The position numbers and the translations under genes were made by a program. A stretch of DNA of 64,000 nt from Allomeiothermus silvanus DSM 9946 (GTDB lineage Bacteria; Deinococcota; Deinococci; Deinococcales; Thermaceae). Positions 13,010 through 17,847 of this stretch are shown here, piece by piece. Location: contig NC_014212.1 of assembly GCF_000092125.1 (NCBI RefSeq), forward strand, positions 62,001 to 126,000. Reading direction: 5' to 3'. Numbering within the stretch: position 1 is the first letter of the stretch; each line of letters opens with the position of its first letter. The notes under the pieces were generated by a model that was not told the origin of the DNA, ran no database searches, and saw only the letters and a list, made by a program, of their open reading frames with translations.

Positions 13010-14224
13010 TTGCAGGATGCCCAGGACCTAGCCCGACAGGCCGCCCAGGCGGTGGATGCTGAAGAAGTGGTGCGCCTGGCGCAGAGACTGGTCCAGATCG
13101 AAAGCTACTACCCCGGCCCCGGCGAAGGGCCGGTAGTGGACTACCTCGAGCCCTACCTGCGCGAGCGGGGGTTCAAGACCACCCTCCAAGCGGTGGCTCC
13201 GGGCCGCCCCAACCTGATCGCGGACTTGGGCCGGGGGCCGGGGGGGCTGATCCTCGAGGGCCACACCGACGTGGTGACGCACGGGAGCCTCGAGCGCTGG
13301 ACGGTTTCCCCCTACGAGGGGCGGATCGTGGGTGGCCGGCTCTACGGGCGGGGTTCCTGCGATATGAAAGGAGGGTTGGCGGCGGCGATTGTGGCGGCCC
13401 AAGCGGTGAGAAAAGTGCTGGGAGAGCCCAGCAAAACCCTGCGCTTGTGCATCCTCTGCGACGAAGAGGGTCTGATGCTGGGGGTCAAGGCGTTTATCCG
13501 GGCTGGGTACGCCGAAGGCTTTGCCGGGGCGATCATCTGCGAGCCGGAGGAGAACCAGATCTGCCTGTGGCAGAAGGGTGCGATGCGGATATGGGCCCAC
13601 TTCCAGGGCCAGATGGCGCATGGGGCGATGCCGTATGCCGGGGCCAACCCGATCCCCTCGGCAGCGCGGTTCGTGGCCGAGTTGGGGCGGCTCCAAAGCG
13701 AACTCCAGGCCGAGAGCTTCCACCAGCATCTGGGAAAACCCTGGATCACCCCCACGATCTTCCAGGGCCTCGCAGGGGAGGGCCAGTTTAACGTGATCCC
13801 CGATCGGGTAAGGGTAGGCCTGGATATCCGCACCAATCCTGGCCAGGATCACCGGGAGATCGAGCAGCGGCTGCAGGCGGCCCTTGCGGCCAGCTTGGAA
13901 GCCGGGGTGACAGCTGGGCTCGAGGTCTTTGAGGATCGCCCGGCTACCGAGACCCCCCGGGATGCCCGCATCGTCCGGGCGGTGGAAGAGGCCCTCGCCC
14001 TGCTGGGTTTGCCGGTGCAGTACGGTGGGGTTCCGGGAGCTACCGACGGTACATTCCTGTGGGCCTGGGCCCGGCTGCCCATCGCCACCATCGGCCCCGG
14101 GGGGCGCACCGTGCCGCATCAGGCCGACGAATATGTGGAACTCGAGGAGCTCATCGCCGCAGCCCGGCTGTACGCTGCAACCAGCGTACTCTTTCTGGCC
14201 GATCCCGGACCTCTCCCCACTTAG
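13010..14224 (+). CDS. M20-family metallopeptidase (ArgE/DapE/carboxypeptidase type)
   Basis: 404 aa; TTG start chosen because AAAGGAG lies 6 bases upstream. Metal-binding features: LEGHTDVV (first ligand His and catalytic Asp), GRGSCDMKGGLAAAI (bridging Asp), ILCDEEG (catalytic Glu) and a C-terminal PGGRTVPHQADEYV with the last His. The dimerisation domain has FQGQMAHGAMPYAGANPI. It hydrolyses an N-acyl or peptide bond with two zinc (or cobalt) ions. Next to a peptide importer, a role in peptide use is plausible. Confidence 0.9.
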   Translation: MQDAQDLARQAAQAVDAEEVVRLAQRLVQIESYYPGPGEGPVVDYLEPYLRERGFKTTLQAVAPGRPNLIADLGRGPGGLILEGHTDVVTHGSLERWTVSPYEGRIVGGRLYGRGSCDMKGGLAAAIVAAQAVRKVLGEPSKTLRLCILCDEEGLMLGVKAFIRAGYAEGFAGAIICEPEENQICLWQKGAMRIWAHFQGQMAHGAMPYAGANPIPSAARFVAELGRLQSELQAESFHQHLGKPWITPTIFQGLAGEGQFNVIPDRVRVGLDIRTNPGQDHREIEQRLQAALAASLEAGVTAGLEVFEDRPATETPRDARIVRAVEEALALLGLPVQYGGVPGATDGTFLWAWARLPIATIGPGGRTVPHQADEYVELEELIAAARLYAATSVLFLADPGPLPT

Positions 14225-14231
14225 GGGGCAG

Positions 14232-14240
14232 TGTGATATT
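14232..14240 (+). promoter_or_regulatory. possible extended -10 for the peptide-transporter leader
   Basis: TGTGATATT fits an extended -10 (TGn followed by GATATT). It would start transcription near 14247, giving a leader of about 190 bases before the ABC transporter gene. Confidence 0.35.
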
Positions 14241-14266
14241 GTGAACCCACGGACGCACCAATGGAA

Positions 14267-14377
14267 CGTGTCTCAGAGCTAAAAAGTTGCCATTGGGCCG
14301 GGGAGCCTGAGAAGGGCTCGCCCGGTGAAGGGTCAAGGGCCGAGGGGTAAAAGCCTCATCGGTTCGCCTGAGATACG
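14267..14377 (+). ncRNA. candidate structured leader RNA upstream of a peptide ABC transporter
   Basis: A closing helix pairs CGTGTCTCAG (14267-14276) with CTGAGATACG (14368-14377). Inside are two hairpins: CCGGG+GAGCC (14298-14307) / GGCTC+CCCGG (14315-14325) with a 7-base loop and a one-base bulge, and CCGA+GGGG (14340-14347) / CCTC+A+TCGG (14354-14362) with loop TAAAAG. This makes a three-way junction 63 bases before the start codon. It does not match the riboswitch consensus sequences I know (TPP, SAM-I, FMN, purine, glycine). Function as a regulatory leader is an inference. Confidence 0.45.
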
Positions 14378-14439
14378 CAGAACCCCGCTCCGGCGCGAAT
14401 ATAACCCGCGACAAAACATCTTCTTCAGGAGGAACTGTC

Positions 14440-15945
14440 ATGTGGAGACGCTGGTTGTTCGTCGGATTAGTGGCCTTGTTGGGCCTTGGTTTGGCCCAGA
14501 ACCGGGGCGGAACCCTGACCATCGCCATCCAGACCGAGCCCGCTGCCTGGGATCCTACCCAAGTGGCTGGGGCCGACATCTCACGGGTGGTGTACGACAA
14601 CGTGTTGCAAGGGCTGGTCAAGCGCAACGCTAAAGGCGAGATCGTCCCCGCCTTGGCCGAGAGGTGGACGGTCTCGAATAGCGGGCTTACCTACACCTTC
14701 AACCTGCGGCGCGGGGTGAAGTTCCACGACGGCTCCGACTTCACCGCCGCCGACGTGGTGGCCAAGTTCAACCGGGCCCGTAACCCCGACAGCAAGGCTT
14801 CCGGTCACCTACGCCCCGACTTGTACAAAGACATTTCGGCAGTGACCGCACCCAACCCCTACACGGTGGTGTTTACGCTGCGCCAACCCAATAACGACTT
14901 CTTATTTATTCTCTCGCGGCCTGAGTCGCTCATCACCCCCAGCGGGGCCAAGCTCGAGGATCTACGAGCCAAGCCCATCGGCACCGGCCCCTTCCGCTTC
15001 GCCGCGTGGGAGCGAGGGGTGGCGGTACGGCTCGAGCGCAACCCTAACTATTACATCCCCAACCTACCCTACTTGGACGGGGTGAACTTCCGCTTCTTGG
15101 GCGATGGTGACGCGCAACTCGCGGGCTTACGGGCCGGTGACCTCGACGTGATCGCTTACAGCCTGCTGCCGGAAAATGCCCAGGTGCTAAGCCGGGATAA
15201 TCGCTTTAAGGTTTTCTCGGGTTCCGGCACCGCCGAAGCCGTAGCGGGTTTCAACCATAGCCGTCCTCCCTTCAACGACGTGCGGGTGCGCCGGGCCATC
15301 ACCTTGGCCACTAACAAGGACGAACTTATCCAGGGCGCCATGCTCGGTTACGGCACCAAGATCGGTTCGATGCGCAGCCCCGGCGAGGCCTGCTACGTGG
15401 ATCTTTCGAACTTTAACCCCTACAACCCCGACGAGGCCCGCAAGCTCCTAGCCGAGGCCGGGTTTACTGCCCAGAACCCCCTCAAGTTCACCTACACCTT
15501 GGCCGCCGAGTTTCCCTACGAGCGCCGCATCGGCGAGGCTATGGTGGCCCAACTCAACAAGCTGGGGCCGATGCTGCAGGTGGGTATCCAGGTGGTGGAT
15601 TTCAACACCTGGATCCAGCGGGTGTTCACCAACGCCGACTATGCCATGACCATCATCGGGCACGTGGAGGCCAACGACATCGGCAACTGGGCCAACCCCA
15701 AGTACTATTGGCGCTACAACAATCCCCGCTTCCAGCAGCTTTTCACCGCCTATTTGCGCGCCCCCAACATGCAAAAAGCCTGCGAGAACCTGGCTGCGGC
15801 CCAGCGCCTTTTGGCCGAGGATGCCGCCGCCGTCTTCACCATGAGCCTGCCTGCGTTGGGTGCCTATCGGGCCAACATCCAGAACTGGCCTGGCTCCAGC
15901 CTCTCTCCAGGCATCGCCGTAGCCGAGGTGTGGTTGCAAAAATAG
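14440..15945 (+). CDS. ABC transporter substrate-binding protein, family 5 (peptide)
   Basis: 501 aa, AGGAGG ribosome-binding site 7 bases before the ATG. A signal peptide (MWRRWLFVGLVALLGLGLAQ) has no lipobox cysteine. The SBP_bac_5 signature RGVKFHDGSDFTAADVV, and IGTGPFRFAAWERG and PYLDGVNFRF, place it with DppA/OppA-type binding proteins for peptides, nickel or sugars. Two permease genes follow; the ATPase genes are not in the window, so the importer must borrow or have distant ATPases. Confidence 0.92.
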   Translation: MWRRWLFVGLVALLGLGLAQNRGGTLTIAIQTEPAAWDPTQVAGADISRVVYDNVLQGLVKRNAKGEIVPALAERWTVSNSGLTYTFNLRRGVKFHDGSDFTAADVVAKFNRARNPDSKASGHLRPDLYKDISAVTAPNPYTVVFTLRQPNNDFLFILSRPESLITPSGAKLEDLRAKPIGTGPFRFAAWERGVAVRLERNPNYYIPNLPYLDGVNFRFLGDGDAQLAGLRAGDLDVIAYSLLPENAQVLSRDNRFKVFSGSGTAEAVAGFNHSRPPFNDVRVRRAITLATNKDELIQGAMLGYGTKIGSMRSPGEACYVDLSNFNPYNPDEARKLLAEAGFTAQNPLKFTYTLAAEFPYERRIGEAMVAQLNKLGPMLQVGIQVVDFNTWIQRVFTNADYAMTIIGHVEANDIGNWANPKYYWRYNNPRFQQLFTAYLRAPNMQKACENLAAAQRLLAEDAAAVFTMSLPALGAYRANIQNWPGSSLSPGIAVAEVWLQK

Positions 15946-15992
15946 GCTAAAGATGCCGGTTTCGGGGTATCCTGTACTCCGTAGCGGAAGTT

Positions 15993-16029
15993 GGAGGCTG
16001 GAAGCAAGGTGATCTTGCTTCTAGCCTCT
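15993..16029 (+). terminator. intercistronic hairpin between binding protein and permease
   Basis: GGAGGCTGGAAGCAAG (15993-16008) pairs with CTTGCTTCTAGCCTCT (16014-16029), 14 of 16 positions (others G-T), loop GTGAT. Such a hairpin after an abundant binding-protein message commonly protects its 3' end and reduces readthrough into the permeases. No T-run. Confidence 0.5.
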
Positions 16030-16049
16030 AGCCTTCGGCCGTTAGTGTG

Positions 16050-16997
16050 ATGTTTGCCTATATCCTCCGCCGCCTGGCTTTCGCAGCAGTCACCCTTTGG
16101 TTGGCGACCTTGCTGGTGTTTGGTGCTTTGCTGCTGATCCCCGGCAACCCGGCCCAGGCCATCCTGGGGATTGATGCCACCCCCGCCGACGTGGCCGCGC
16201 TCGAGCACCGCCTGGGCCTGGATAAACCTCCGCTCGAGCGCTATCTGAACTGGCTGGGCGGGGTGCTTCGGGGCGACCTGGGCCAGAGCATCCGCTACGA
16301 GACCTCCATCTCGGGGCTGATCGTGGCCCGGCTGGGGATCACCTTACCTATCGTGATCGCGGCGCTCCTGCTGGCGACTTTGATCGCGGTGCCGCTGGGC
16401 ATTTTGGCCGCGCGGCGGGTTGGGAGCTGGGCGGACATAGCAGTTTCGCTGGGATCGCTGGTGGGGATCGTGCTGCCTTCGTTTTGGGCGGGGTTGATGT
16501 TCATTTACATCTTTATCGTCTGGCTCAAACTGCCTTTGCCCTCGAGCTTCCCCATCGGCGGCTGGAAAGACCCCGCTAGGGCCATCGCCGCGCTGGTGTT
16601 GCCGGTACTCACCGTGGGGTTGGCCAGTTCCTCGCTATTGGTGCGGCTGGTGCGGGGGAGCGTGCTCGAGGTATTGCACCAGGACTACGTGCGTACAGCC
16701 CTGGCTAAGGGCCTCTCTGAGCGGGTAGTGCTGTATAAGCACGCCCTGCGCAACGCAGCGTTGCCGGTGGTGACGGTGCTGGGGCTGGAGTTCGCCCAGC
16801 TTCTCATCGCCACGGTGGTGGTCGAGACGGTCTTCGGCATCCCCGGTCTGGGCTCGCTCTCCTTGCTAGCGATCAGCGCTCGGGATTACCCGTTGGTGCA
16901 AGGGGTGGTGTTGACCATCGCCGCTTTTATCGTGCTGCTCAACCTGATCGTGGACTTGTTGTACGCGCTGCTCGATCCGAGGGTCAGCTATGCGTAG
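16050..16997 (+). CDS. peptide ABC transporter permease, DppB type
   Basis: 315 aa membrane protein with about six transmembrane helices, starting FAYILRRLAFAAVTLWLATL. The cytoplasmic EAA loop that contacts the ATPase is visible as DYVRTALAKGLSERVVLYKHALRNAALP. The ATG at 16050 directly follows an in-frame GTG at 16047. The stop overlaps the next gene by 8 bases. Confidence 0.93.
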   Translation: MFAYILRRLAFAAVTLWLATLLVFGALLLIPGNPAQAILGIDATPADVAALEHRLGLDKPPLERYLNWLGGVLRGDLGQSIRYETSISGLIVARLGITLPIVIAALLLATLIAVPLGILAARRVGSWADIAVSLGSLVGIVLPSFWAGLMFIYIFIVWLKLPLPSSFPIGGWKDPARAIAALVLPVLTVGLASSSLLVRLVRGSVLEVLHQDYVRTALAKGLSERVVLYKHALRNAALPVVTVLGLEFAQLLIATVVVETVFGIPGLGSLSLLAISARDYPLVQGVVLTIAAFIVLLNLIVDLLYALLDPRVSYA

Positions 16998-17847
16998 CCT
17001 GAACGCTGAGCGCCGAGCCCCCAAGGCCAAAAGCCTCTGGGCCAAGTTGCCGCCTTCGGGAAAGATCGGCGGGTTCATCCTTACGCTGATCCTGCTGATG
17101 GTGGTGGCGAGCGCGCTCAACCCCGTAGACCCCAACGCCACCACCCCCAACCGGCTTTCTCCCCCTTCGCTGGCCCACCCGCTGGGTACGGATATTCTGG
17201 GGCGGGATACGCTGGCTCGAGTCCTGGCCGGGGCCGAGAACGCCCTATACGTGGGCTTGGTGGCGGTGGGAATCGGCTTATCACTGGGGTTGGTGCTGGG
17301 GGTTATAGCCGGCTACTTCGGCGGCTGGCTCGATCAGGGATTATCGGTGCTTTTAGAAACCCTCTATGCCCTTCCTGCGCTCCTGATCGCCTTGTTGCTC
17401 GCGGCTATCTTCAATCCGGGCGTCACCACCTCGATGGTGGCGATTGGGCTGGCGGCAGTCCCGGCCTTCGCGCGGGTCGCGAGGGCCAGCGTGCTTTCGG
17501 TGAAAGCACAACCGTATATTGAAGCAGCCAAGGCTTTGGGTATGGGTCCTTTGCGCATCATGCTCCGCCATGTGCTCCCGAATATCCTGGGGCCGCTGGT
17601 GGTGCAGGCCAGCCTGGCCTTCGCGGCGGCGATCCTGGCCGAGGCGGCCCTTTCGTATCTGGGCTTGGGCACCCAGCCCCCCAACCCCAGCTGGGGCCGG
17701 ATGCTGCGCGAGGCGCAGAGCTACCAAGAACTTACGCCCTTCCCGGTCATCTTTCCGGGCATGGCCATCGGCCTGGCGGTGCTGGGGTTCAATTTGTTGG
17801 GGGACGGGCTGCGGGACTGGCTCGATCCGAGGCAAAGGAGCCAATAA
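16990..17847 (+). CDS. peptide ABC transporter permease, DppC type
   Basis: 285 aa, translationally coupled to the DppB-type gene. Typical DppC features: HPLGTDILGRDTLARVLAGA near the first periplasmic region, and the EAA loop PYIEAAKALGMGPLRIMLRHVLPN. About six transmembrane segments. Forms the heterodimeric channel with the previous gene product. Ends GWDGLRDWLDP-like (LLGDGLRDWLDPRQ). Confidence 0.93.
   Translation: MRSLNAERRAPKAKSLWAKLPPSGKIGGFILTLILLMVVASALNPVDPNATTPNRLSPPSLAHPLGTDILGRDTLARVLAGAENALYVGLVAVGIGLSLGLVLGVIAGYFGGWLDQGLSVLLETLYALPALLIALLLAAIFNPGVTTSMVAIGLAAVPAFARVARASVLSVKAQPYIEAAKALGMGPLRIMLRHVLPNILGPLVVQASLAFAAAILAEAALSYLGLGTQPPNPSWGRMLREAQSYQELTPFPVIFPGMAIGLAVLGFNLLGDGLRDWLDPRQRSQ

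What the first reader, a model, noticed from the sequence alone, without database searches (positions are those of the whole stretch)
14247..14439. Unassigned branched leader RNA before a peptide ABC operon
A 10-base-pair closing helix (14267-14276 with 14368-14377) encloses two stable hairpins, one with 10 pairs and a bulge and one with 8 pairs and a bulge, forming a three-way junction. It lies between a possible extended -10 and the ribosome-binding site. The shape suits a riboswitch or protein-binding leader; it does not match the classes I know.
Basis: partly seen in the sequence, partly recalled or inferred. Interest (0 to 1): 0.62.

Follow-up and report, generated by a model that had tools for sequence, protein, structure and literature searches.

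The report
Pseudoknotted leader RNA of Thermaceae transporter
A previously unlisted folded RNA sits in front of a peptide-uptake operon in heat-loving bacteria; it is strongly conserved, and in a related genus the same RNA and its promoter are written inside the protein-coding end of the neighbouring gene.

Summary
The structure is real, but its core is a pseudoknot, not a simple three-way junction. An outer helix P0 (14250-14256/14387-14392) closes the domain, and a 17-nt hairpin (14394-14410) lies just upstream of the ribosome-binding site.

Orthologous binding-protein genes in Meiothermus carry the same leader. A covariance model built without the window's sequence finds the window leader (E 4.5e-6 in 64 kb; next hit 0.87). 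Nineteen base pairs show changes on both sides (0/500 shuffles reach this). A congener has no change in about 148 core bases, where fourfold sites differ by 21-23%. Rfam gives nothing, even at E<=10.

In Calidithermus the element, promoter included, lies inside the 3' end of the upstream M20-peptidase gene, written there by rare synonymous codons. In Meiothermus and the window genus it is intergenic, which suggests duplication followed by division of labour.

Most likely it is a cis-acting leader of the SBP/permease operon (0.68). Ligand and switching mechanism are unknown; shielding of the ribosome-binding site was tested and is inconclusive. Distribution is narrow: three Thermaceae genera.

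The parts
14234..14242 (+). extended -10 promoter element TG-A-TATTGT; expected transcription start about 14249-14250, at the first base of P0
   Evidence: TGnTAT invariant at this place in 15 homologues of three genera; no good -35, and the sigma-70 consensus scan found none
14250..14256 (+). P0, 5' strand (CGGA-c-GC), pairs with 14387-14392
   Evidence: different sequences, same pairing in three genera (CGGA.GC/GCTCCG; CGGGCG/CGCC.CG; CG.GCG/CGC.CG; CG.GTG/CAC.CG); predicted
14258..14296 (+). hairpin A: 14258-14267 with 14286-14296, 10 bp and one bulge; 18-nt loop with A-rich tail
14268..14276 (+). pseudoknot strand 1 (GTGTCTCAG) in the loop of hairpin A, directly on top of its 5' strand
   Evidence: 9 bp with 14368-14376; counterparts GTATCGG/CCGATAC, TATCTC/GAGATA, GTATC/GATAC in relatives; three Meiothermus leaders lack both strands
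14298..14325 (+). hairpin B: CCGGG-GAGCC / GGCTC-g-CCCGG with 7-nt loop UGAGAAG
   Evidence: helix 4: 5 of 8 pairs with double changes; loop GAG.A invariant across genera
14330..14386 (+). stem-loop C: outer stem GGGT 14330-14333 / ACCC 14382-14385 enclosing a hairpin found only in the window genus (about 14337-14366) and pseudoknot strand 2
   Evidence: appears when hairpin A is enforced; Meiothermus and Calidithermus counterparts GGTG.GGC/GCCCACC, GGCA.AGC/GCCTGCC, ACGAG/CTCGT. Congener changes in the inserted hairpin keep or strengthen pairs (G-U to G-C)
14368..14376 (+). pseudoknot strand 2 (CTGAGATAC)
14387..14392 (+). P0, 3' strand (GCTCCG)
14394..14410 (+). hairpin D: CGCG / CGCG with 9-nt loop AATATAACC; always 17 nt in all relatives
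14427..14432 (+). ribosome-binding site AGGAGG of the SBP gene (ATG at 14440)
   Evidence: shielding by the pyrimidine tract just upstream is predicted but not above shuffled controls
14440..15945 (+). regulated first gene: extracellular solute-binding protein family 5 (SBP_bac_5)
   Evidence: Pfam PF00496, 2.6e-91
16047..17847 (+). two permease genes of the same operon (16047-16997 and 16990-17847)
   Evidence: Pfam PF00528
13010..14224 (+). upstream M20 peptidase (ArgE/DapE family) gene; its Calidithermus orthologue contains the RNA element in its 3' end

Best explanation
It is a cis-acting, pseudoknotted 5' leader RNA of the SBP/permease operon, a class not in Rfam. SHOWN by sequence: homologous leaders, covariation, conserved promoter core, purifying selection, and a form embedded in coding sequence in Calidithermus. 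INFERRED: RNA polymerase starts at about 14249-14250. The nascent leader folds into P0 closing hairpins A, B and C, with hairpin A's loop locked to stem-loop C by the pseudoknot and hairpin D beside it. Formation of this compact fold, governed by a bound metabolite or protein or simply by folding, sets how much of the operon is expressed, most likely at translation initiation, because no conserved terminator follows the domain. A natural but untested guess is a signal linked to imported peptides or amino acids. INFERRED history: the element first lay inside the 3' end of the peptidase gene (still so in Calidithermus); a duplication of that gene end in the ancestor of Meiothermus and the window genus left one copy for protein and one for RNA.
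For: No Rfam family at E<=10. A model from Meiothermus and Calidithermus only (R2) finds window 14248-14410 at 37 bits, E 4.5e-6; next hit in 64 kb 0.87. 91.7% of cells paired, 19 pairs with double changes, covariation 0.260 against 0.147 shuffled, 0/500 shuffles; sliding the partner drops pairing to 35-47% (the alignment is model-fitted). Pseudoknot present in all three genera and both strands missing together in three leaders. No change in about 148 core nt against the congener while fourfold sites differ 21-23%. One copy per genome, before the orthologous SBP gene, in 12 Meiothermus, 2 Calidithermus and 2 window-genus genomes; no other hit at E<=0.1 in a search of 111 Deinococcota genomes. 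In Calidithermus, similarity to the leaders needs the actual synonymous codons (z 6.4-11 by resampling, 3.5-6.8 by permutation). Codon usage there is below every gene window examined (0/1444; 0/676). Rare codons fall on the -10, both pseudoknot strands, hairpin B's loop and hairpin D's loop.
Against: Few single-stranded positions outside hairpins B and D are conserved across genera, unlike a classic ligand-binding core. No conserved expression platform found: a U-run after hairpin D occurs only in some Meiothermus, and shielding of the ribosome-binding site is not above shuffles. Five Meiothermus-group genomes keep the SBP gene without this leader (G015, G019, G027, G031, G033). Narrow distribution. 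Transcription start not measured. Milder codon decline at the peptidase gene end also occurs in some Meiothermus (L015, L009, L017), so the codon anomaly alone is not specific.
Confidence: 0.68

Rival explanations
1. It is a small-molecule riboswitch proper: a metabolite (peptide, amino acid or derivative) binds the pseudoknotted core and switches expression. This is a narrower form of the best explanation.
For: Loop-loop pseudoknot in a multi-helix domain closed by P0, own promoter, position before a transporter operon, covariation.
Against: No strongly conserved junction nucleotides across genera; no clear expression platform; one lineage-restricted locus per genome rather than several regulons.
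Confidence: 0.3
2. It is a passive or protein-bound leader: the fold protects the 5' end of a highly made SBP mRNA from decay or sets a constant translation rate, with no sensing.
For: Helices are conserved more than loops; the first gene is an SBP, a subunit usually made in excess (general knowledge).
Against: Keeping a 9-bp pseudoknot and a 17-nt hairpin D of fixed length, and bending codon choice in Calidithermus to keep them, is more than a stability hairpin needs.
Confidence: 0.3
3. It is a trans-acting small RNA made from the 3' end of the peptidase gene, like DapZ from dapB, which represses oppA and dppA in Salmonella (PMC7821165).
For: In Calidithermus it starts at an internal promoter in the 3' coding end of the peptidase gene; Meiothermus has a short U-run after hairpin D.
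Against: No conserved terminator; it lies on the same strand immediately before the SBP gene in all genomes with a match; compact fold with few free conserved stretches.
Confidence: 0.08
4. It is an element acting as DNA (operator repeats), not RNA.
For: The promoter core is conserved with it.
Against: Conservation follows base pairing, including a pseudoknot and G-U pairs, over 160 bp downstream of the promoter.
Confidence: 0.03

Closest known systems
Riboswitch-type leaders with loop-loop pseudoknots (purine, lysine and M-box classes; from general knowledge)
   Same: Closing helix, several hairpins, long-range loop pairing, between promoter and the start of a transporter gene
   Different: No Rfam match; different helix order and loop sequences; ligand and switch unknown; limited to three Thermaceae genera
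3'-end-derived small RNAs of type I, e.g. DapZ from dapB (PMC7821165)
   Same: Own promoter inside the 3' end of a coding gene (Calidithermus form); link to peptide ABC transporters
   Different: Lies directly upstream of its presumed target on the same strand, no conserved terminator, strongly folded: looks cis-acting
Coding sequences that also carry RNA signals (general knowledge)
   Same: Synonymous codons constrained by RNA structure
   Different: Here the same element is found both inside a coding region and, in sister genera, free of it next to an intact gene copy

Membership tests
Any of 4227 Rfam 15 families | covariance-model match at gathering score, or even E<=10 | tested here: not met
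   only a tRNA in the window; best leader matches are 13.5 and 9.4 bits against unrelated families, E>6; eight homologous loci likewise
Homologous leader family of Meiothermus/Calidithermus (defined here) | match to a model built without the window | tested here: met
   R2: 37 bits, E 4.5e-6, next 0.87; the Meiothermus-only model R1 alone was inconclusive (12-15 bits)
Homologous leader family of Meiothermus/Calidithermus (defined here) | P0, hairpins A, B, C, D and pseudoknot A-C in the same order | tested here: met
Riboswitch | structured conserved domain in a 5' leader | tested here: met
Riboswitch | expression platform (terminator or shielded ribosome-binding site) coupled to the domain | tested here: inconclusive
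   no conserved terminator; shielding not above shuffles
Riboswitch | specific small-molecule binding | not testable with these tools
   needs probing or binding assays
Type I 3'-end-derived sRNA (DapZ-like) | own promoter plus terminator giving a discrete RNA | tested here: inconclusive
   promoter core conserved; conserved terminator not seen; no RNA-seq

The most novel reading that the evidence does not exclude
A new riboswitch-like class that arose inside the 3' coding end of a peptidase gene, promoter included, where it still lies in Calidithermus; a duplication in the sister lineage then separated the protein-coding and RNA functions into two copies.
Probability: 0.3. Interest if true: 0.8.

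Novelty: new variant of a known kind. Interest (0 to 1): 0.62.

Why it matters
It adds an undescribed, well-supported structured leader RNA in thermophiles suited to structural work. The same element exists both overlapped with a gene end and freed from it, so how a coding-embedded regulatory RNA is maintained and later released can be tested directly in culturable species.

Tried and rejected
DNA search with the window leader found only the congener and chance hits inside coding genes (L003, L004). Meiothermus-only model R1 did not clearly find the window leader; adding Calidithermus did. MAFFT misaligned the full set, so model-fitted alignment A13 and a hand-made helix table were used. Genome-wide R2 search of G000 and G001 returned nothing, presumably because its quick first look did not pass the site, although direct search of the window and L006 does. 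Shielding of the ribosome-binding site: inconclusive. Leader against the window's own peptidase 3' end: no similarity (z -0.2), so the duplication is inferred through Calidithermus only. Short leader ORF GTG-TCT-CAG-AGC-TAA (14268): seen on reading, Meiothermus sequence differs there; set aside. Literature searches found no description of such a leader in Meiothermus.

Full report
WHERE. The window lies in a 3.72-Mb, three-contig genome of a Thermaceae genus of which a second species (G001) is held. By size and kinship I take it to be Allomeiothermus (inference). The finding lies between an M20 peptidase gene (13010-14224) and an operon of a family-5 solute-binding protein (14440-15945) and two permeases (16047-17847), followed by an SDR gene.

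OBSERVATION. The helix and two bulged hairpins are present; the minimum-energy fold is moderately better than shuffles (z -2.28). Rfam has no match even at E<=10 beyond chance hits to unrelated families.

RELATIVES. DNA search finds only G001 as a true relative. Orthologous SBP genes exist in Meiothermus (82-86%), Calidithermus (75%) and Thermus (57-60%) (genus names, Thermus by inference). Upstream of the Meiothermus orthologues is a leader with the same promoter core, a closing helix and hairpins, one copy per genome in 12 genomes.

STRUCTURE. In the window its 5' strand (14268-14276) is the loop of hairpin A (14258-14267/14286-14296); in Meiothermus the loop GTATCGG pairs with CCGATAC in the third stem-loop, and three leaders lack both strands. 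In all species that have it, the pseudoknot strand follows hairpin A's 5' strand with 0-1 nt between. P0 is kept by different bases in different genera. In the model-fitted alignment A13, 91.7% of cells pair, 19 of 42 pairs have changes on both sides, and none of 500 shuffles reaches this; slid partners pair at 35-47%. The fit to the model favours the structure, so one search lists the strands as read from the sequences. Enforcing hairpin A in the window makes P0, stem C and hairpin D appear unforced.

HOMOLOGY OF THE WINDOW LEADER. A Meiothermus-only model gives only 12-15 bits. A model with Calidithermus added, still without the window, gives 37 bits, E 4.5e-6, next best 0.87. A search of 111 Deinococcota genomes gave hits only in Meiothermus and Calidithermus at E<=0.1.

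CONSTRAINT. Against G001 there is no change in 14233-14334 and 14365-14410; all changes lie in or beside the genus-specific inserted hairpin and before the ribosome-binding site. Fourfold sites of the neighbouring genes differ by 21-23%.

CODING OVERLAP IN CALIDITHERMUS. The model hit there, 106-253 nt upstream of the SBP match, is inside the peptidase gene. Local alignment to that coding sequence gives z 8.6 for the window leader and z 10.0-10.8 for two Meiothermus leaders, but about 0 for leaders against the peptidase ends of their own genomes. The similarity rests on synonymous choice: resampling codons gives z 6.4-11, permuting the same codons z 3.5-6.8. Codon usage over codons 340-394 is lower than in every window of neighbouring genes in both Calidithermus species, while the window's own peptidase is normal. 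Rare codons coincide with the -10 (TAT GGT GGA GTT), hairpin A (GAT), pseudoknot strands (TAT C.. / GAG ATA), hairpin B's loop (AGA) and hairpin D's loop (CGA CTA). Milder declines at the gene end occur in some Meiothermus. Synonymous identity between the two Calidithermus species is 52/57 in the element against 229/286 elsewhere, suggestive only.

HISTORY. With Thermus as distant relative, an SBP tree puts Calidithermus outside, then two genomes without the element, then the window genus with Meiothermus (drawn with midpoint root). The simplest reading is an element first embedded in the gene end, freed by duplication in the ancestor of Meiothermus and the window genus, and lost or replaced in some lineages. 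This is inference.

FUNCTION. A cis-acting leader is best supported by position, orientation, promoter and one-to-one association with the SBP operon. Whether it senses a metabolite, binds a protein or acts passively is open; a conserved terminator was not found and shielding of the ribosome-binding site is not above shuffled controls.

Noticed in passing
L017, L018, L020 (also L071, L072), about 130 nt before the SBP gene: Some Meiothermus genomes have a different base-paired leader before the same SBP gene (closing helix GCTGAGTT/AACTCAGC or close to it), with no Rfam match in L018; possibly a second undescribed leader.
   Followed up: partly
window 14440-17847: The operon has SBP and two permeases but no ATPase gene beside it; ATPases are presumably supplied from elsewhere.
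   Followed up: no
L015 peptidase gene, last 55 codons: The peptidase 3' end of Meiothermus G011 also has poor codon usage (z -6.4) and GC3 0.51 against 0.76, although its leader is separate; unexplained.
   Followed up: partly
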